Shown piece after piece: positions 53,460 through 61,917 of a stretch of 64,000 nucleotides of DNA (the first letter of the stretch is position 1; every line of letters starts with the position of its first letter). The notes under the pieces were generated by a model, which saw only the letters and a list, made by a program, of their open reading frames with translations, had not been told where the DNA came from and ran no database searches. Both the position numbers and the translations under genes were made by a program. Source of the DNA: Campylobacterales bacterium (lineage in GTDB: Bacteria; Campylobacterota; Campylobacteria; Campylobacterales; Sulfurimonadaceae); NCBI GenBank assembly GCA_016938735.1, contig JAFGUB010000010.1, positions 1 through 64,000 of the forward strand, in the 5' to 3' direction.

Positions 53460-53804
53460 TCAATAAGGCGCTGTGGGCGCAGATGCTCCATAAGCGTTCT
53501 CACCCTCTTCGCTTTTCAAGACGTAGAAGTAGATCAGTACAAAGAGGCCCAGAACCGGGATGAGACCAACCAGTAACCACCAGCCGCTTTTGCCGATATC
53601 GTGCATACGGCGTATACCTACGGCGATGCTAGGCACCAAAACGGCCAACGCGTAGATGAGTCCAAGTGTTTCAGAGAGTACATTGAGGATAAGCGATACC
53701 AAAAAGTGCGCCAGAATAAAAAACCAAATCTCTGCCCGCCCCGCACGACCTGTGAATCCGGTGTAGTTTTTCAACACCGATAGATACCAATTGACCATCT
53801 CCAT
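53460..53804 (-). CDS. DUF805 inner-membrane protein
   Basis: This protein (114 residues from the chosen ATG, 53802-53804) fits DUF805. It starts W-Y-L-S-V-L-K-N-Y-T-G-F-T-G-R-A-G-R-A-E and has about three to four membrane helices and the conserved I-R-R-M-H-D-I-G-K-S-G-W-W-L-L. The function is unknown (YhaH/YhaI-like in E. coli). GGAG lies upstream of this ATG; earlier in-frame ATGs up to 53831 would add nine residues. It is co-directional with the small membrane protein downstream. Confidence 0.85.
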   Translation of the reverse strand: MEMVNWYLSVLKNYTGFTGRAGRAEIWFFILAHFLVSLILNVLSETLGLIYALAVLVPSIAVGIRRMHDIGKSGWWLLVGLIPVLGLFVLIYFYVLKSEEGENAYGASAPTAPY

Positions 53805-53917: not shown

Positions 53918-53945
53918 GCAAAGCCCCTACTCGGGTTGGCTTTGC
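53918..53945 (-). terminator. Stem-loop at the end of the envelope operon
   Basis: GCAAAGCC and GGCTTTGC (53918-53925 and 53938-53945) pair perfectly; inside them CCC and GGG can pair further. It covers the stop codon of the TMEM43-like gene on the minus strand. There is no strong T tract, so it is terminator-like rather than certain. Confidence 0.5.
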
Positions 53946-55099
53946 GGCGGCGTTCTTTTCCATTGGGGCTGGGCAGTTTCGTCTGTTTTAGCGCGTGTTC
54001 TTGCCCAGTAGATGAGCCCTGCGACAAGCAGCAGCAAGATACCCGTGAGCCACGGACGATACATAAACCACGCAATCACGATGATGCCGCCGCCGAATAT
54101 TAGCGTCAGTATGGCAGAAACAAGCGCGGTGCCCGTACCGACCAGATTGCCCAAAAAGGGAACGACCGATGCCAGCGTCGCAATCGGTCCCATGATGAGC
54201 AAAAAACCGCTGAACATTAAAAAGAGCCCAAGTGCGCGCAAACCCCATGCCAGAAGCGTGTTTTCATGTTCCGCCTGAGCGAAAATCGCTTCAGCGCTAT
54301 GGTTCCCTGAGACGACGAAGCCGATGTCATTGCCGTTTGGCAGCGTGTGGTAGCCGAGGTTTTTTTGCGCACCCTGATCAGCGACGATGCTAAATGGTCC
54401 GTCGGGAATGATGGTGTAGCTGATGCGTAGATCGCCCACCTGCGGTGCGGAGGGATCGGCTCCGATATAGAGCGCGTCGCCCTGCAGGGTTGCGGCGGTC
54501 GCGGTTTCGATGCTTTGGGGGAGAAAATCACGCCATCCGTCGGCCTCGTCAAGCAGTTCGGGTGCAAGCGTAAAGTCGCCGATGGTAGCCGTCGCGCCGA
54601 ACTGATCATCCGAATAGGGAAAAGAGGGGTTGGTATGTTCGGCAGATTGTCTAAAACCGGCAGAGTTGATGTGGGTGCTGCTCCATGTCGTCTCATAGCG
54701 GTAGGTTTTTGTGGTGGTCTCCTTGCCGCCGAGCTCCTGTTTGGTCTCTTCGCTCACCTCTTCGCGCCACTGATACATGGCCACATCGCGTTTGAGCAGG
54801 ATCCCCTGAGCATGCACGCCAAAGAGGGGGTCAAAAAGTGCGCCGCCATGCAGTGCGCCGCTGATGTGTATCGGTTTGCCGTTGTTTTGAGGGTCAAAAA
54901 CCGGCTCCGGAAGCGAGAGGGTCGCGGCAAGACCCGCAGAGAGCGTTTCGGTGCGCTCAACCGTGCGCCCCTCATTCCACCAGAGTAAAACAGTAGCGCC
55001 GATGAGCAGCGCCACGCCAAAGAGTATCCCCTTGAGCGACTCACCCAGACGCGAGCCGTAAGAGCGGGTTGTCGTTTCGGTAAAACTATCCTGTGCCAT
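53927..55099 (-). CDS. TMEM43-family membrane protein
   Basis: The 390-residue protein has one N-terminal helix (about 22-42) followed by W-N-E-G-R, a hallmark of the TMEM43/LUMA family. A large soluble domain follows (about 45-275, with W-R-E-E and G-F-R), and a cluster of membrane helices (about 280-375) ends with a charged Pro-rich tail. Bacterial members have no known function; the eukaryotic relatives sit in nuclear/ER membranes. Its ATG follows the AIM24-like stop by 2 nt, so the two are translated together. Confidence 0.82.
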   Translation of the reverse strand: MAQDSFTETTTRSYGSRLGESLKGILFGVALLIGATVLLWWNEGRTVERTETLSAGLAATLSLPEPVFDPQNNGKPIHISGALHGGALFDPLFGVHAQGILLKRDVAMYQWREEVSEETKQELGGKETTTKTYRYETTWSSTHINSAGFRQSAEHTNPSFPYSDDQFGATATIGDFTLAPELLDEADGWRDFLPQSIETATAATLQGDALYIGADPSAPQVGDLRISYTIIPDGPFSIVADQGAQKNLGYHTLPNGNDIGFVVSGNHSAEAIFAQAEHENTLLAWGLRALGLFLMFSGFLLIMGPIATLASVVPFLGNLVGTGTALVSAILTLIFGGGIIVIAWFMYRPWLTGILLLLVAGLIYWARTRAKTDETAQPQWKRTPPQSQPE

Positions 55100-55101
55100 G
55101 A

Positions 55102-55887
55102 TCAGCGCTCAAACATGCCGGCAATGCCGCCAAGTACCGAGCCTTCGCCCTGATCGCTTCCGCCGCCTGAAGGTGCGCTGCGGATGACGCGCTCTGCCAA
55201 ACGTGAAAACGGCAAACTCTGCAGATAGACACTGCCGTGCCCGCGCAGCGTGGCGAGAAAGAGCCCTTCGCCGCCAAAGATCATCGACTTGAGGTTGCCC
55301 GCTTTTTGAATGTCAAAGTCGATGCCCGGCGTGTAGGCGACCAGACAGCCGGTATCGACAAAGAGCGTTTCACCTTTGAGCTCTTTTTTCACGATGGTGC
55401 CGCCCGCGTGCAAAAAGGCCATGCCGTCTCCGCGCAGCCGCTCCATAATGAAGCCTTCGCCCCCAAAAAAACCACGCCCAAGCTTGCGGCTAAAGGAGAT
55501 GTCAAGCTGTGTGCCCAGTGCGGCGCACAAAAAGGCATCTTTCTGGCAGATGATCTCGTTTTCATGTTCAGCCATGTCAAGCGCTATGATCTTGCCCGGA
55601 AACGGCGCACCGAACGCGATGCGTTTTTTGCCGCTGCCTTTGTTGGTAAAGTGGGTCATAAAGAGCGACTCGCCCGTAATCATGCGCTTTCCGGCACCAA
55701 GCATGGTGTCAAAAAAACCGCTGCTCGTCTTGGAACCGTCGCCCATCTTCGTTTCAAACACAATGCCATCATCCATCCACGACATCGCGCCCGCTTCGGC
55801 GATGACCGTTTCGCCCGGATCAAGCTCCACCTCGACAACCTGCAGGTCGTCTCCCATAATTTCATAATCGACTTCGTGACATACCAT
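55102..55887 (-). CDS. AIM24-like (TIGR00266/DUF124) protein
   Basis: The 261-residue protein is predicted to be a beta-rich trimer-like fold. It matches the AIM24 family: [19 protein letters not shown] near 20-38, G-E-S-L-F-M-T-H-F near 71-79, F-G-G-E-G-F-I-M-E near 139-147 and F-G-G-E-G-L-F-L-A near 208-216. It has no signal peptide and is probably cytoplasmic or membrane-associated. GGAG lies before the ATG. The family occurs widely in bacteria and in mitochondria (inner-membrane organisation) but has no defined biochemical role. It is flanked by the exported micropeptide and TMEM43 genes. Confidence 0.88.
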
Positions 55888-55910
55888 TAGTGACTCCTTT
55901 GAATTTTGGT

Positions 55911-56042
55911 TTATTGTAACAAAATATGGTTGCCATTTGCCTCTAGCGAGCGTTGTGGATCTGGTTCCCAGAGGCCAACGGGCGGTGTTGCAAAAAGGCT
56001 TACATGTAAAGCCAGAATCAGAAGTAAAAATCGTAGTCTCAT
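55911..56042 (-). CDS. Exported micropeptide of 43 residues
   Basis: This small gene encodes 43 residues: a basic start M-R-L-R, a hydrophobic core and a cleavage site after L-F-A (about residue 18). A short mature part with [11 protein letters not shown] follows. AAAGGAG is 5 nt before the ATG, and the ATG overlaps the stop of the DUF3137 gene as ATGA, the same coupling seen elsewhere in this operon. The exact palindrome (56000-56009) encodes Leu-His-Val in the signal core. No family is recognised. It is followed by the AIM24-like gene 23 nt downstream. Confidence 0.65.
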
Positions 56043-56995
56043 GGGGTCTCCTTTGAGGTTGAATCTATCGGCGTGGCGGGAGCACGCAGCAGGTGATGCG
56101 CTTCGATGGCGTGGATCAAGTCGATGATGCTATCCATCATTTCAAAATGTTCTTTAATCCCCTCAAACGACGTCATCGGTCTCTTTTCCCAGCCAATTTG
56201 CGGTTCCAGCCAGCCGCCTGCGAGGTCAACGAAAACATAAATATGCTGCGCGCAAAATGAGAGCCTGAAAGGGAATTTTTGCGCTGTTTTGGTGATGGCT
56301 TCCATGACCGTGTAGTTCAGCAGATAATGCGCCTGAGTGGTGTCGCTGCCATAAACGATAAAGTGTTTTTCAAATTCAGGGCTGTCAAGGCGGAGGATCG
56401 GCAGGCCTTCTCTTTCTTTGTTTTGCACCGCTTTTCCTGCATCGCCCGCAATGCGTTCGGCAAGATCGGGAACGATCAGCGTCGCTCCCATGATGTTGAG
56501 CTGCGTCGGCGCGGCAACGAAAAGTCCGCAATGTCTTTTGATGATGGTCTTGTTGTCGGCATCGTTATACTGCTGTTCAAGCATCACATCGACCATCTCA
56601 ATGCTGCGCCCCGCCTCTTTAAAACGGGTGTGCTTTTTCTGCTCAAGCTTATGCATGTGAATGAAGTTGAGCAGTTTTGAGTTGCGCAACTCCCGTTCAT
56701 CAATGCCGCCTTCATAAGAAAAGCTAAACGCCTCTCCAAGTTGCCCCATCAGTGGTATGACGATCTTGTTTCGATAAGCGGATGCAATACTGTTTCTTGA
56801 GAGCAGCATCGCAATAAAACCAAGCGCGGCAACAGGCCCGCTCACTTCAGGCATCACCCCAAAAAGCAGGGCAACAAAAGCAATGAGCGTGATACCGACA
56901 AGGTACTGAGAGAGTTTCATTATCAAAGGAAAACGCCCAAGCGTGGGCTTGATGTGCTGTTCAAAGTAAGGTTCGAGGGTGTTGATGCGAGACAC
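56039..56995 (-). CDS. DUF3137 domain membrane protein
   Basis: The 318-residue protein has two membrane helices near 28-47 and 51-66, then a soluble cytoplasmic domain with F-S-F-S-Y-E-G-G-I near 90-98, [11 protein letters not shown] near 208-218, and I-Y-V-F-V-D-L near 251-257. It matches DUF3137 proteins (galanin-like in older annotation), of unknown function. Its start overlaps the OmpA-like stop by one base and its stop overlaps the micropeptide start, so it is in the middle of a tightly coupled operon. Confidence 0.8.
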
Positions 56996-58554
56996 TATTT
57001 CTCCTCAATCAAAAATCGAATTTCATACGTACCGTCATACCCGTTAATCCGTCCATAAACATGCTTGCCGTCACCTCTGTCTGGGATTTCAAAGGATAGG
57101 TTATTGCTGTAGTTGCCTATGATCTTGGCGTTGTAAAGCTCCAGCACGTTTTCATAGTTTTTGATGATTGCCTTGCGTGAAAAGGTTTTGTCGGTTTTGC
57201 CCTCTTTTTGAATCTCGTAGGAGATAACGTCAAGATGCCCTTTTACTGCGCGGTTCTCTCTTGTTTTAGCGTAGGGCTGGGTGTAATCGATGTTAAGTTC
57301 ACTGTTGTCGTAGCGGTATTGTGAGGTAATAACCGAGCCTTCAATTGGCTTAATAAAGTCAATCGTAATAACCGATTGTTTATCGCCGCCGCGCTCTTTG
57401 TGCAGCTCTACACGACGGTTTTGCGCACGCCCTTCGTCGGTGTCGTTGGTGGCAACGGGATCCTCTTCGCCATGACCTTTATAGCTCAGACGCGAAGCAT
57501 TCACACCTTCGGCAATCATCGCCTCCATCACCGCTTTGGCGCGCGCTAGCGAGAGGGTTGCATTGTAGGTATCATCACCTTTGGAATCGGTGTAGCCGTG
57601 CACGGAAAGTTCCAGATCGCTATAGCGCTGCATCAGTGCTACGGCAGAGAGAATTGCTTTGCGTGATTCGGGTTTTAAGGTAGCTTTGTCAAAATCAAAG
57701 TAGATACCATCAAGAGTGATTTTACCGCTTTTATCCAGCTCGGTTTTAATAGAATCTGGCGTGAGAATCAGGGCCTGGTTAAAGGCCTCTTCTTGAATGA
57801 TGTGAAGTGAAAAGGTGTTGTTGTAGCCTGCAAATTTTGCAATGGAATCACCTAGCCTGAAAGTAAAACTGTTCTCCTCATCTTTTAAAATCGTACCTCC
57901 AAGTGCGAGGAGCTTCTTTTTGTAATCATTGGCGACAATGTAACGGTAGCTGTCTGTCTCTTTGGCGGTTTTTTCATAATCAATCTTCCAGTATCGGCCT
58001 TCGTGTTGATGGCCGCCTTTGTCGTAATAAAAAGTGGCTTCATCAAACATAAAATACGAAGCATTCGAGATGACAAACCCCTTAACATTGGGAAGCAGCG
58101 GGTGTTTGGGAAAGCTCAATTTTTTAGATGGTGTCACATCGTAGGTTCCCTCAAAGGGCACGCTCACCACATCAGGGCAGGGTGTTACATGTAAGAGCAC
58201 ATAACTGTAGCTTCTGTTGTAGGATGCAACTTTGAGATAGTACGACTCGCCCTCATTTTCAAAGTGGGCAAAACGATCTTGAAAGAGCCTCGCATCAATA
58301 CCAAGCTGCGCGGCAAAAAAGGCTTTTGTCTTTTGCTCGTAATCATCGCCAATGGAATCCGGATGCGTAAAGTCCTGAGCGCTTGTTTCGCCATACACCT
58401 TCACATAGCCTTTTTCTTTGACCCAAAATTCAAGCATACCGTAGCGTTCATGCTTGAGTGGCGCGCCTGGCTTGGCGTTGGGGTAAGTGAGGTCGGGAAG
58501 CTCCATGGCTCCTAGTAAAAGAGGGAGCAGGAGCGTAAAAAAAAGTGTTTTCAT
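56995..58554 (-). CDS. OmpA-like peptidoglycan-binding protein with C-terminal extension
   Basis: The 519-residue product has a signal peptide (about 1-16), a large unrecognised N-terminal region, and an OmpA/MotB-type domain at about 275-385. The latter shows F-D-F-D-K-A-T-L-K-P-E-S, H-G-Y-T-D-S-K-G-D, L-S-L-A-R-A-K-A-V and N-R-R-V-E-L. Unlike most OmpA-family proteins, about 130 residues follow the domain, including a beta-rich segment to the end. It should bind peptidoglycan from the periplasm. It overlaps the upstream lipoprotein gene by 4 nt. An exact palindrome copy (58185) encodes Leu-His-Val. Confidence 0.82.
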   Translation of the reverse strand: MKTLFFTLLLPLLLGAMELPDLTYPNAKPGAPLKHERYGMLEFWVKEKGYVKVYGETSAQDFTHPDSIGDDYEQKTKAFFAAQLGIDARLFQDRFAHFENEGESYYLKVASYNRSYSYVLLHVTPCPDVVSVPFEGTYDVTPSKKLSFPKHPLLPNVKGFVISNASYFMFDEATFYYDKGGHQHEGRYWKIDYEKTAKETDSYRYIVANDYKKKLLALGGTILKDEENSFTFRLGDSIAKFAGYNNTFSLHIIQEEAFNQALILTPDSIKTELDKSGKITLDGIYFDFDKATLKPESRKAILSAVALMQRYSDLELSVHGYTDSKGDDTYNATLSLARAKAVMEAMIAEGVNASRLSYKGHGEEDPVATNDTDEGRAQNRRVELHKERGGDKQSVITIDFIKPIEGSVITSQYRYDNSELNIDYTQPYAKTRENRAVKGHLDVISYEIQKEGKTDKTFSRKAIIKNYENVLELYNAKIIGNYSNNLSFEIPDRGDGKHVYGRINGYDGTYEIRFLIEEK

Positions 58555-60806
58555 TCACACTTCTCGTTCTGGCAGGGTTCGAGCGTGAAATCGCAATAAG
58601 ATGCTCCGTCGCCTTTGGACATGGAAGACCACTCGGATTTTTTGCCTGCTTTGATGTTGGCAAGGGTGTCAGAAGCAAAGTTGCCAAAACAGCCGTTGAC
58701 GGGTCCATGACCGTAGGAACCTTCCCAGATAATTGACTCTATCTGCCACTCAATCGAAGGAATATAGGCTTCAAAAACGATACCTTCTGTTGCTATGGTC
58801 ATGTCTGAACCGAGATAAGGGTCGGCTTGTATGATGCCACTGTAAGAAAGGGAGGCCTTTTTCATTGTTCTGATATCAAGCTGATCATCATCAACCCACG
58901 CACATGTTGGAATCTCTCGATAGCCGATATTGCCAATCACAATAGCATCAGAGCTAGCATCATTGCCGGTGAGAGGATTGCTACAATCAAGTGTAAAGTT
59001 TTTATAGGTGACAGTGCCGCTTCCAAGATCGGGAAATACGTAGTTGATACGCAAGCGCCACAGCGGACTTAGCACAATCTTTTCCGTACCTGAAGCACAC
59101 ACATGGATGGTTTTGACATATGTGCCATCAACACTCACTTTATAATCACCAAATGGCATATTTTCAAAAACGGCCTCGCCCAGATCGTTGGTATCTACCT
59201 CTTCGCTCATTAGCAGCGAGTTGCCATCAACACCCTGATCTGCGCACGCATCTTGCTCAATGGTGACTCTTTTGTTCTCCAAAGGTACATCGGAAGCATC
59301 CACAACATCAATGCTAATGGTGCCCTTAACACTCGCATCGCTAAGGGTAAAATTTGCTTTAGCTGTAGGGCTGTCAAAAATAATGTTGCCCAGAGTTAGC
59401 GGGCATTGGCACGATGTATTCATGGTGGCGGTGTATTCACCTAGTGGAATATTCTTGACTTCAACGCTGTTGCCGCTGACACTGCCTTTAAAGGTATCTT
59501 CTTTAGGAGATGGGCCGATTCTATCAAGCGTTATCTCACCATTGAGCGTGACATCAGCGGTGACTTCTCCTGTTAGGATCTGATCGGCAGCACTCTCATA
59601 AAGTACCGATGCGGCATGAACAACACGCTTAATCGTCACTGTGTCGCCATCACGCGTGTAGGCATCGGCGTAGCTTAGATTGTGCGCTTTGACCTCATTG
59701 GTTTTGCCGTTTGTCGAACCGATATGGTAGAGATACTGCGTTAGTGTCTGCGCTACATTTCCAGGCGAGCCCATGGTGCTTTTGATGAAGTGGCTGTCAA
59801 TTTTGGTTTTTGCTTCGGTAAGAAACATGCTAAATTGGTCAATGCCCGTTTCGCCAAAGCCATCAAAGGTTCCGGTTTCCACATATGAAACACTCAAATG
59901 CCATCCTGTCAGATAGGGCGAGACATCCATATTCGTGACGGCTCGCACCGTATCTCTAACCATCACGGATGAAGCGATGCGCAGCGGTGATGCCGTCGCG
60001 GGAGTTTCATAAAGCAGTGTGCTGTCACTGTAGACCCAGCCGCTTTTGCGATACCACACATCTGCAATATCGCTAAGGGTATCTTCAAATCCGCTGGCTT
60101 TGTTCTGATCTTTGGCTACAACCATGACTGTGGTCTCACTGCCACTGTAAGCGACGCTTTTACCCTCATGAATGCTGCGCGTTGAAAGCGGCAGCTTTTC
60201 GCCCGAGCTGGTGTAGAAATCGAAATAGGCAATTTCGGTGTTAAGGCGTGCGCAGGTGTAGATAAGATCTTTGATATCCATAACGCCGTCGCCATTGGTA
60301 TCATAGGCGCTGTCGCTGTTAAAGAGGGCGCTTTTGAGCACGTCGAGGTCTTTGCTATCCACGCGGTAATCCCCGTTGGCATCACCGTTAAGAAGGTAGT
60401 TTTCATAATCGATCATGCCCTCTTTCACGCTGACGCTAAGGCTTTTGTTGCTGCCGCGCGGGGCAAATGACGGGAGGGTGTCTGTAGTGCTGAGGTGCTG
60501 CAATATGTCAATGCCAAACCTGTCAAACTGTATGCCAAACGCCGCTTCGTCGCTTTTGAGCGAATCAAGAAGCGTCTGCATGGCGGTGTAGGTATTGACG
60601 GCTTCATTGTTGAGTGTGCGCACCGCAGTGCCGTCGCTGTTGTAGTTATACGCAGCGGTGACTACTGAAGCGCTGCTATTGGCGCCGCCGGTTGCGGATG
60701 TGCTACTCTCTCCGGTTGCCTGAGTGTCGCTTCCGCCACCGCCACCGCCACAACCGATCAATAATGCCGTCATCGCGGCAAGTAAAAAAATGGGCGCTGT
60801 TTTCAC
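58551..60806 (-). CDS. Large lipoprotein with dockerin-like calcium loops
   Basis: The 751-residue product has a lipobox L-I-G-C (Cys near 19) followed by a Gly/Ser/Thr linker. Near 137-190 two calcium-loop motifs occur, G-D-A-N-G-D-Y-R-V-D-S-K-D-L and Y-D-T-N-G-D-G-V-M-D-I-K-D-L, the paired layout of type I dockerins. Beta-rich domains follow, including Cys-rich stretches (C-Q-C-P, C-A-D-Q, C-A-S) and a final C-x-x-x-x-C. The start is GTG 60806 with AAAAGG upstream. The signal resembles that of the upstream lipoprotein (A-L-L-I-G-C-G-G-G), so the two may be targeted together. A dockerin partner (cohesin) is not seen here. Confidence 0.72.
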   Translation of the reverse strand: MKTAPIFLLAAMTALLIGCGGGGGGSDTQATGESSTSATGGANSSASVVTAAYNYNSDGTAVRTLNNEAVNTYTAMQTLLDSLKSDEAAFGIQFDRFGIDILQHLSTTDTLPSFAPRGSNKSLSVSVKEGMIDYENYLLNGDANGDYRVDSKDLDVLKSALFNSDSAYDTNGDGVMDIKDLIYTCARLNTEIAYFDFYTSSGEKLPLSTRSIHEGKSVAYSGSETTVMVVAKDQNKASGFEDTLSDIADVWYRKSGWVYSDSTLLYETPATASPLRIASSVMVRDTVRAVTNMDVSPYLTGWHLSVSYVETGTFDGFGETGIDQFSMFLTEAKTKIDSHFIKSTMGSPGNVAQTLTQYLYHIGSTNGKTNEVKAHNLSYADAYTRDGDTVTIKRVVHAASVLYESAADQILTGEVTADVTLNGEITLDRIGPSPKEDTFKGSVSGNSVEVKNIPLGEYTATMNTSCQCPLTLGNIIFDSPTAKANFTLSDASVKGTISIDVVDASDVPLENKRVTIEQDACADQGVDGNSLLMSEEVDTNDLGEAVFENMPFGDYKVSVDGTYVKTIHVCASGTEKIVLSPLWRLRINYVFPDLGSGTVTYKNFTLDCSNPLTGNDASSDAIVIGNIGYREIPTCAWVDDDQLDIRTMKKASLSYSGIIQADPYLGSDMTIATEGIVFEAYIPSIEWQIESIIWEGSYGHGPVNGCFGNFASDTLANIKAGKKSEWSSMSKGDGASYCDFTLEPCQNEKCE

Positions 60807-60827: not shown

Positions 60828-60859
60828 TTACATGTAAAGCCCAAAAGCCTTACATGTAA
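60828..60859. repeat. Two exact TTACATGTAA copies between lipoprotein genes
   Basis: Copies at 60828-60837 and 60850-60859 are 12 nt apart. Together with flanking GG/CC they can form one imperfect long hairpin. They lie between the terminator of the 61-kb lipoprotein gene and the start of the dockerin-like lipoprotein gene, so they would be in the leader or promoter of the latter. Confidence 0.6.
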
Positions 60860-60862
60860 ACC

Positions 60863-60886
60863 AAAAATCTCAAGCCGGAGCTTGAG
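60863..60886 (-). terminator. Rho-independent terminator after the 61-kb lipoprotein gene
   Basis: On the minus strand CTCAAGC-TCCG-GCTTGAG is a perfect 7-bp stem, followed by ATTTTTGG. It lies just after the lipoprotein TAA stop, so it should end or attenuate that transcript before the dockerin-like gene. Confidence 0.65.
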
Positions 60887-60888
60887 GA

Positions 60889-61842
60889 TTAGTTACATGT
60901 AGCGTCTTTTGTAACACTATAAACATAAAGGTTGTTAGGGCAGCTCTCCCCTGAACCATCGCCAATGCCACTCCAGCAGGTGCTTCCAATCACAAGCTGG
61001 TTGTTTGTATTGAGTTCAAGCGAGTCATTGAGAACCTCGCCCTCGTTATCGGTGCCCGACCATGAGAGTCTGTGCGGCTCAAAATCTGTATTGAGTGAGA
61101 TGGTATCTCCGAGAGTTGTAGTTGTACTTGACGCGCCGGATGCGGAGGTGATGATTTTGTATTCAAAGGTTCCGTCACATTTGAAAGATGCGGTGATTTT
61201 TTGATGCATAGTGTAGGCGCCACCGATGGTGTTTGATGATTCGTTTGAGGTGATGGTATAACCCTTGACATCATCGACGCTGTTGATGGTAAAAGTAGAG
61301 CTGTTGGATGGCGTTGAAGTTTCTGAGGAGACCACGGCGTTTTCATCGATGCCGTTGTCACTGTTTGAGACAATAGCGGTTGTGATGTAGCTACCCGCGA
61401 GTGATTCTCCGACAACGACTTCTTGTGAAGCATTGAGTGAGATTGCATTGTTATAAAGTTCACCCTGATCATCAGTGCCTACCATAGTTAGCATAGCAAT
61501 GCCAAAGGTGTCATCAATGCTGTAAGTAGTATGCACGACTTTGCGCTCGCCATTAAAATAGTCAGTAATAACAATACAGGCATTGTTAGGCAGAAAAATA
61601 AAAGTGAACTTTTGATAGTTACTGACTGTAACAGCTCCTTCTTGTTCTGCTTCGACGGTATAGCCTGCAAGGTTGTTGGCATTGCGAGACTGTTCGCTTT
61701 GAGCGGCTTGAGCGGAAGAGGTGCTGCCTTCTGCGCTGCTTGAACTTTTTGGCGTGTCACCGCCGTTGTCGCTGCTGCCGCCGCCGCAGCCGATCAAAAG
61801 CGCCGTAACGGCTGCAAGAGAAAGTGTCGTAATGCGTTTCAT
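60889..61842 (-). CDS. Hypothetical lipoprotein
   Basis: From ATG at 61840-61842 the product is 317 residues with a lipoprotein signal (M-K-R-I-T-T-L start, L-I-G-C near 15-18), a Ser/Gly/Gln-rich linker and two similar beta-rich repeats. Each repeat has a Y-T-V/Y-T-I opening strand, a G-T-D-x-x-G-E strand (near 125 and 270) and a later N-N/N-A-S stretch, so an internal duplication is likely. The earlier in-frame ATG at 61914 would place 24 unrelated residues before the signal. The last codons fall in a near palindrome copy. Function unknown; it sits directly downstream of the response regulator. Confidence 0.7.
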   Translation of the reverse strand: MKRITTLSLAAVTALLIGCGGGSSDNGGDTPKSSSSAEGSTSSAQAAQSEQSRNANNLAGYTVEAEQEGAVTVSNYQKFTFIFLPNNACIVITDYFNGERKVVHTTYSIDDTFGIAMLTMVGTDDQGELYNNAISLNASQEVVVGESLAGSYITTAIVSNSDNGIDENAVVSSETSTPSNSSTFTINSVDDVKGYTITSNESSNTIGGAYTMHQKITASFKCDGTFEYKIITSASGASSTTTTLGDTISLNTDFEPHRLSWSGTDNEGEVLNDSLELNTNNQLVIGSTCWSGIGDGSGESCPNNLYVYSVTKDATCN

Positions 61843-61917
61843 AAGTATGCCTTTGTGATGTGTTGATGCCATCATAGGGCAGCGCCGTTGCGCCAACGTT
61901 GCAACAACGCACAAAAT

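What the first reader, a model, noticed from the sequence alone, without database searches (positions are those of the whole stretch)
53927..60806. Tight envelope operon: dockerin-like lipoprotein, OmpA-like, DUF3137, micropeptide, AIM24-like, TMEM43-like
Six minus-strand genes overlap or nearly touch (4-nt and 1-nt overlaps, ATGA, then 23-nt and 2-nt gaps). They combine an outer lipoprotein, a peptidoglycan binder, an inner-membrane protein of unknown function, a secreted peptide, and two families shared with eukaryotic organelles or membranes (AIM24, TMEM43). The order spans outer membrane to cytoplasm, which suggests a trans-envelope assembly. I do not know a described system with this composition.
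Basis: partly seen in the sequence, partly recalled or inferred. Interest (0 to 1): 0.65.

Follow-up and report, generated by a model that had tools for sequence, protein, structure and literature searches.

The report
AIM24-TMEM43 membrane partner gene pair
The six-gene 'envelope operon' is one bacterium's own arrangement, but its last two genes, AIM24 and TMEM43 (families shared with our own cells), form a pair that recurs in other bacteria, apparently held together there by a GYF domain on AIM24 gripping proline-rich 'TPPPR' tags on TMEM43's tail, which would give two poorly understood families a testable joint function.

Summary
The layout is real: every overlap and gap is as stated, and AIM24, TMEM43, DUF3137 and OmpA pass curated cut-offs. 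The dockerin call is sub-threshold and the micropeptide is doubtful. The six-gene grouping recurs nowhere I looked; in the only congener held, synteny ends just upstream of the AIM24 start codon.

What recurs is AIM24 then TMEM43, same strand, in six other loci of five Campylobacterota genomes (AIM24 internally deleted in two), plus an AIM24 remnant in the congener. Of 298 phylum genomes, 7 have TMEM43, 7 AIM24, 5 both (Fisher 2e-8, not tree-corrected). The partner AIM24s are GYF_2-AIM24 fusions. In those genomes TMEM43 ends in a predicted cytosolic tail with TPPPR motifs, absent in Campylobacterota where GYF-AIM24 is absent (one draft genome excepted), the window included. In one complete genome TPPPR occurs only in its two TMEM43s, and the only GYF_2 domain is on the adjacent AIM24.

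Best reading: AIM24 docks on TMEM43's cytosolic face as a membrane-complex scaffold, with GYF-TPPPR as the latch in most Campylobacterota carriers; the window pair lacks both halves. The upstream trio is lineage-specific. Docking and scaffolding are inferred; the tree-corrected test is underpowered.

The parts
53927..55099 (-). TMEM43 family membrane protein, 390 aa: N-terminal helix, large beta-rich (predicted periplasmic) domain, three further helices, short C-terminal tail. Second gene of the conserved pair.
   Evidence: PF07787 219.9 bits; AlphaFold model pLDDT 88.7; recurs beside AIM24
53930..53974 (-). TMEM43 C-terminal tail AQPQWKRTPPQSQPE: one TPP, no TPPPR; absent in the congener G001.
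55102..55887 (-). AIM24 (TIGR00266) family protein, 261 aa, short type without GYF_2 domain, no signal peptide seen. First gene of the conserved pair.
   Evidence: PF01987 250.8 bits; closest solved structure PA3696, 1YOX, E 3.7e-96
53460..53804 (-). DUF805 membrane protein; follows TMEM43 here and in the congener, so possibly a third member of the block.
   Evidence: PF05656 93.9 bits; 82% identical and syntenic in G001
55911..56042 (-). Doubtful 43-codon ORF ('micropeptide').
   Evidence: SD-like sequence, but GC3 0.34, no family, contains hairpin and repeat palindrome
55997..56013 (-). Terminator-like hairpin GGCTTTACATGTAAGCC followed by TTTTT, between DUF3137 and AIM24.
   Evidence: consensus scan only, total count no higher than in shuffles
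56039..56995 (-). DUF3137 protein, diverged copy (one of four DUF3137 matches in the genome). Lineage-specific part.
   Evidence: PF11335 77.8 bits
56995..58554 (-). OmpA-like protein, 519 aa: N-terminal hydrophobic (signal-like) segment, unique N-terminal region, OmpA peptidoglycan-binding domain at 285-380, unassigned C-terminal region. Lineage-specific part.
   Evidence: PF00691 77.6 bits; no homologue of residues 1-265
58551..60806 (-). Predicted lipoprotein (LIGC lipobox), 751 aa, dockerin-like repeats below cut-off. Lineage-specific part, probable first gene of the transcript.
   Evidence: sub-threshold Pfam matches; only N-terminal similarity elsewhere
60869..60886 (-). Terminator-like hairpin closing the upstream lipoprotein gene.
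   Evidence: consensus scan

Best explanation
The cluster is two things side by side. The part with evolutionary support is a two-gene module, AIM24 then TMEM43 (with DUF805 behind it in this genus). The three genes upstream (lipoprotein, OmpA-like, DUF3137) are a lineage-specific envelope module joined to it. Likely mechanism: TMEM43 sits in the inner membrane with a large periplasmic domain and a cytosolic C-terminus. AIM24, a soluble beta-rich protein, is held against its cytosolic face, and together they act as a scaffold that stabilises membrane protein complexes. In most Campylobacterota carriers the docking is by lock and key: a GYF_2 domain at the N-terminus of AIM24 binds TPPPR motifs (one to three copies) in the TMEM43 tail. 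The window pair has neither half, so contact there would be through the core domains. Shown: gene pairing, GYF_2 fusion, motif distribution and its near-exclusivity in the genomes checked. Inferred: topology, physical binding, scaffold role.
For: AIM24-TMEM43 adjacency, same order and strand, in the window, G013, L029 (G432), L032 (G435), G400 and two loci of G203, plus an AIM24 remnant before TMEM43 in the congener. Co-occurrence in 5 of 298 genomes with 7 and 7 carriers, Fisher 2.3e-8. GYF_2 fused to AIM24 above cut-off in four of four partner-type proteins scanned. TPPPR tails in 8 Campylobacterota genomes, 7 of them with GYF-AIM24; none in 10 without it (Fisher 2.5e-4). In complete genome G203, TPPPR occurs only in the two TMEM43 proteins, and the only GYF_2 domain is on the neighbouring AIM24; no other TPPPR protein at the other matches in G400, G432 and G435. 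Eukaryotic relatives: AIM24 proteins stabilise membrane complexes (PMC6677890); TMEM43 is the assembly hub of the RNF26 complex (PMC7332293).
Against: No physical evidence. The tree-corrected test of tail against GYF-AIM24 is underpowered. G434 has a TPPPR tail and no AIM24 found; G437 and G449 have GYF-AIM24 and TMEM43 without TPPPR. AIM24 is internally deleted beside intact TMEM43 in three loci, so TMEM43 can persist without it. The window pair itself lacks both halves of the latch. AIM24 is common without TMEM43 elsewhere. The model of GYF-AIM24 was too poor to show docking.
Confidence: 0.55

Rival explanations
1. All six products form one trans-envelope assembly from outer-membrane lipoprotein to cytosolic AIM24.
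For: Overlapping genes suggest translational coupling; the predicted locations would span the envelope.
Against: No recurrence of the grouping; upstream genes absent in the congener; no homologue of the OmpA-like N-terminal region; terminator-like hairpin inside the cluster.
Confidence: 0.1
2. AIM24 and TMEM43 are a co-expressed pair without direct contact: both respond to the same membrane stress, and the TPPPR tails bind something else.
For: AIM24 deletions beside intact TMEM43; G434 keeps the tail with no AIM24 found; the short-type AIM24 of the window has no GYF_2.
Against: In G203 the only GYF_2 domain and the only TPPPR proteins are encoded by these neighbours; tail and fusion vary together.
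Confidence: 0.2
3. The adjacency is inherited by descent and transfer within one group of bacteria, with no functional meaning.
For: Most cases are in Sulfurovaceae and kin; neighbouring species are not independent observations.
Against: Linkage persists between TMEM43 proteins only about 35-40% identical and in differing gene neighbourhoods; the fusion domain and the tail motif sit on the two neighbouring genes.
Confidence: 0.1
4. The GYF_2 domain binds AIM24's own PPSR-type linker (self-association), and the TMEM43 tail motif is secondary.
For: Linkers of GYF-AIM24 carry APPSR, SPPSR or GPPSR; SPFH-GYF_2 proteins carry PPPxP motifs on both sides of their own GYF_2.
Against: Does not explain why TPPPR appears on TMEM43 only, in genomes with GYF-AIM24.
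Confidence: 0.25

Closest known systems
CD2BP2 GYF domain binding the CD2 cytosolic tail (recalled, not searched here)
   Same: A GYF domain paired with tandem proline-rich motifs in the cytosolic tail of a membrane protein.
   Different: Different families (AIM24 and TMEM43), a bacterial GYF_2 domain, a TPPPR motif, adjacent genes; binding here is not shown.
Eukaryotic TMEM43/LUMA and the RNF26 complex (PMC7332293)
   Same: Same Pfam family; a multi-pass membrane protein on which other membrane proteins assemble.
   Different: No AIM24 partner or TPPPR tail is described there; no ubiquitin ligase in bacteria.
Yeast AIM24 and plant PAWH1/PAWH2 (PMC6677890)
   Same: AIM24-domain proteins that stabilise membrane complexes (mitochondrial inner membrane, Hrd1 complex at the ER).
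   Different: No TMEM43 partner described; partner-type bacterial forms carry GYF_2.
Bacterial AIM24/TIGR00266 proteins PA3696 (1YOX) and SpyM3_0169 (1PG6)
   Same: Same family; PA3696 is the closest solved structure to the window AIM24.
   Different: No function known; no GYF_2.
SPFH (Band_7_1)-GYF_2 proteins of the same phylum
   Same: GYF_2 domain on a membrane-scaffold type protein, with PPPxP motifs nearby.
   Different: SPFH in place of AIM24; motifs lie in the same protein, and not adjacent to TMEM43.
LemA-DUF3137 gene pair
   Same: DUF3137 family; this genome has a LemA-DUF3137-EI24 row elsewhere.
   Different: The window DUF3137 is a diverged copy with no LemA beside it.

Membership tests
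TMEM43 (PF07787) | Profile match above curated cut-off over the whole domain | tested here: met
   219.9 bits, profile 1-250 of 250, cut-off 23.3
TMEM43 (PF07787) | Four membrane helices, one before and three after a large domain, C-terminus in the cytosol | tested here: inconclusive
   Model shows helices 14-59, 269-302, 314-346, 349-375 around a beta-rich domain; side of the membrane not tested
AIM24 (PF01987 / TIGR00266) | Profile match above curated cut-offs | tested here: met
   250.8 bits, cut-off 25.7; TIGR00266 126.4 bits, cut-off 96.6
GYF_2-AIM24 / TPPPR-TMEM43 latch type | GYF_2 domain on AIM24 | tested here: not met
   Window AIM24 has AIM24 only; no GYF_2 match in G000. Met in L008, L064, L029, L067
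GYF_2-AIM24 / TPPPR-TMEM43 latch type | TPPPR motif in the TMEM43 tail | tested here: not met
   Window tail ends RTPPQSQPE
GYF_2-AIM24 / TPPPR-TMEM43 latch type | AIM24 directly before TMEM43 on the same strand | tested here: met
   2-nt gap
Eukaryotic-style GYF / proline-rich peptide recognition | Physical binding of GYF_2 to the motif | not testable with these tools
   Needs binding assay or complex prediction
Dockerin type I | Profile match above curated cut-off | tested here: not met
   16.7 bits, cut-off 22.9
OmpA peptidoglycan-binding domain (PF00691) | Profile match above curated cut-off | tested here: met
   77.6 bits, cut-off 27.2
Six-gene trans-envelope system | Recurrence of the grouping in other genomes | tested here: not met

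The most novel reading that the evidence does not exclude
A bacterial two-protein membrane scaffold in which the GYF_2 domain of AIM24 grips TPPPR tags on the cytosolic tail of TMEM43: a dedicated domain-peptide latch that appears and disappears together on the two partners. It would be a first functional assignment for bacterial AIM24 and a prokaryotic setting for the family of the cardiomyopathy protein TMEM43.
Probability: 0.5. Interest if true: 0.75.

Novelty: new variant of a known kind. Interest (0 to 1): 0.58.

Why it matters
As of 2019 nothing was known of the physiological function of any bacterial AIM24 (PMC6677890), and no paper in the searched library names AIM24 and TMEM43 together. 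TMEM43 mutations cause a severe human cardiomyopathy, and neither a sequence search nor a fold search found a solved relative of the window's TMEM43. A natural bacterial pair with a short defined peptide motif and a 50-residue candidate binding domain makes a joint function directly testable by peptide binding and pull-down.

Tried and rejected
Six-gene machine: rejected on non-recurrence. Micropeptide as a confident gene: rejected on composition, hairpin and lack of homologues; RNA folding of the stretch is unremarkable (z -0.49). Sigma-70 scan: no minus-strand promoter-like site in the region, uninformative. TMEM43 fold search against PDB: no match with E below 0.001. GYF-AIM24 structure: poor model from three sequences (pLDDT 59), no inference drawn. 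PSP envelope-stress paper PMC11237479: no mention of AIM24, TMEM43 or DUF3137. Plasmid records: TMEM43 in six alphaproteobacterial records, none of them among the listed AIM24 hits. A first impression that the window pair arose independently (trees put AIM24 with L011/L012 and TMEM43 with G001) was dropped when an AIM24 remnant was found before TMEM43 in the congener, which fits older linkage in the genus. A gammaproteobacterial survey could not be run.
Full report
WHAT IS THERE. The window lies in genome G000 (2.85 Mb, 62 contigs). Its only same-genus relative held, G001, is the record titled Sulfuricurvum sp. (locus L027). TMEM43, AIM24, DUF3137 and OmpA pass Pfam's curated cut-offs; the dockerin match does not. 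The 43-codon 'micropeptide' has a good ribosome-binding site, but its third-position GC is 0.34 against 0.58-0.66 for DUF3137, AIM24 and TMEM43, it matches no family, and it spans a terminator-like hairpin with a T-run at 56013-55997. A second such hairpin at 60886-60869 closes the upstream lipoprotein gene. The total number of such sites is no higher than in shuffles, so these only suggest transcript boundaries.

DOES THE GROUPING RECUR? Not as six genes. Among 120 relatives TMEM43 is in 5, AIM24 in 6 and DUF3137 in 55. In 24 TMEM43 loci from the species-level collection and in the further loci fetched, DUF3137, the OmpA-like protein and the lipoprotein are never beside TMEM43. The first 265 residues of the OmpA-like protein have no homologue in 200 genomes of the order or in plasmids; the lipoprotein matches elsewhere only in its N-terminal part. 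In the congener the block DUF805-TMEM43 is conserved, and DNA similarity runs about 11 nt past the AIM24 start codon and stops. There, AIM24 itself is reduced to its first 29 codons joined to its last few. So the upstream trio was joined to an older AIM24-TMEM43-DUF805 block, or lost in the congener; either way it is not part of the conserved unit.

THE CONSERVED UNIT. AIM24 followed by TMEM43 on the same strand (2-56 nt apart where AIM24 is intact) is found in the window, G013 (L008/L041), L029 (G432), L032 (G435), G400 (L063) and twice in G203 (L064, L065). In L032 and in the second G203 locus AIM24 carries an internal deletion, as in G001. In an even draw of 298 Campylobacterota genomes, 7 have TMEM43 over cut-off, 7 have AIM24 and 5 have both; Fisher p is 2.3e-8 if genomes are treated as independent, which they are not. 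G148 and G160 have both genes, on different contigs. The pairing is not universal: G205 and G223 have TMEM43 and no AIM24, G081 has AIM24 without TMEM43, and TMEM43 genes on alphaproteobacterial plasmids have other neighbours, similar among three of the records read.

THE LATCH HYPOTHESIS. The four intact partner-type AIM24 proteins scanned (L008, L064, L029, L067) are fusions: a GYF_2 domain (PF14237, 31-43 bits, cut-off 25.8) ahead of AIM24. GYF domains bind proline-rich peptides in eukaryotes (established knowledge). The TMEM43 proteins of the same genomes end in tails with TPPPR motifs, for example STPPPRENDATPPPRSDATPPPRT (L029), STPPPRTPPPRRED (L008) and SATPPPRKEEREEAQQGEATPPLRSDATPPPRES (L065). 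Campylobacterota TMEM43 proteins without GYF-AIM24 end soon after the last helix and lack the motif. By genome: 7 have GYF-AIM24 (one of them, G435, with only the GYF part and the ends of AIM24) and a TPPPR tail; 1 has the tail with no AIM24 found (G434, whose TMEM43 is nearly identical to that of G148, which has GYF-AIM24); 10 have neither (Fisher 2.5e-4, not tree-corrected). The tree-corrected test has too few independent changes to decide. Two gammaproteobacterial genomes (G437, G449) have GYF-AIM24, not adjacent, and TMEM43 tails without TPPPR.

GENOME-WIDE SPECIFICITY. I fetched the complete genome G203 in pieces and called 2,217 genes with a simple caller. TPPPR occurs in exactly two proteins, the two TMEM43 copies. 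The only GYF_2 domain, by my profile and by Pfam's, is on the AIM24 next to one of them. A back-translated search in other genomes, followed by reading the frames, found no other TPPPR protein at the remaining matches in G400, G432 and G435, nor at the seven of ten other matches examined in G148; G013 has one other in its gene set, a TPR protein. Other GYF_2 proteins read in the phylum are SPFH-GYF_2 fusions that carry PPP-type motifs on both sides of their own GYF domain, consistent with GYF_2 being a proline-motif binder.

WHERE THE WINDOW STANDS. The window's AIM24 is a short type without GYF_2, grouping with L011 and L012, and G000 has no GYF_2 match at all. Its TMEM43 tail, AQPQWKRTPPQSQPE, has one TPP and no TPPPR. 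Lock and key are both missing, which agrees with the hypothesis but means the window pair is not itself of the latch type. Its contact, if any, would be through the AIM24 core and the TMEM43 cytosolic face.

MECHANISM. TMEM43 is modelled with confidence (pLDDT 88.7) as an N-terminal helix, a beta-rich domain and three further helices, with no meaningful PDB counterpart. Four membrane passes would put the tail in the cytosol with AIM24, which has no evident signal peptide (inference). By kinship, AIM24 proteins stabilise membrane complexes in yeast mitochondria and plant ER (PMC6677890), and TMEM43 is the component on which the RNF26 complex assembles (PMC7332293). I commit to a membrane-complex scaffold: functional pairing about 0.85, GYF-TPPPR docking about 0.65 in carriers that have both halves, scaffold role about 0.45. 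DUF805, downstream in this genus, may be a third member.

COMPARISON. It works like eukaryotic GYF-tail recognition such as CD2BP2-CD2 (recalled), with different families. No paper in the searched library holds both AIM24 and TMEM43, and none found by combining GYF domain, SPFH, AIM24, TMEM43 and DUF4339 links GYF domains with AIM24 or TMEM43. Preprints and most subscription papers are not in that library.

Noticed in passing
window, 28 sites, e.g. 56000-56009, 58185-58194, 60828-60859: The palindrome TTACATGTAA occurs 28 times in 64 kb against 0.02 expected, and 1,061 times in the genome. It is similarly abundant in the congener (794), in genera g3 and g5, in two g16 genomes at differing levels (367, 48) and in a distant family (G091, 1,220), but 0-6 times in most other genera: a HIP1-like highly iterated palindrome with patchy distribution. 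8 of the 28 are intergenic although about 95% of the window is coding. The HIP1 paper PMC4390886 does not mention it.
   Followed up: partly
L007:10160-10260, L032:7490-7980, L065:8750-9175: AIM24 beside TMEM43 has lost its interior three times while both ends survive and TMEM43 stays intact; one case is in a complete genome, so not an assembly fault there.
   Followed up: partly
L195, L198, L200, L201: SPFH (Band_7_1)-GYF_2 proteins carry PPP-type motifs both before the GYF domain and at the extreme C-terminus, as if for head-to-tail self-association.
   Followed up: partly
L223-L225 (Phaeobacter and Ruegeria plasmids): TMEM43 sits in a conserved row with a 189-aa protein before it and two hypothetical proteins after it, on conjugative plasmids among others; no AIM24.
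   Followed up: no
L012:7153-10818: In G092 a short-type AIM24 gene overlaps a 763-aa beta-propeller (PF09826) gene and is followed by a MntP-type putative manganese efflux gene.
   Followed up: no
window 60889-61854: A second lipoprotein gene just upstream has a similar N-terminus and lipobox to the dockerin-like one, suggesting shared origin of the signal region.
   Followed up: no
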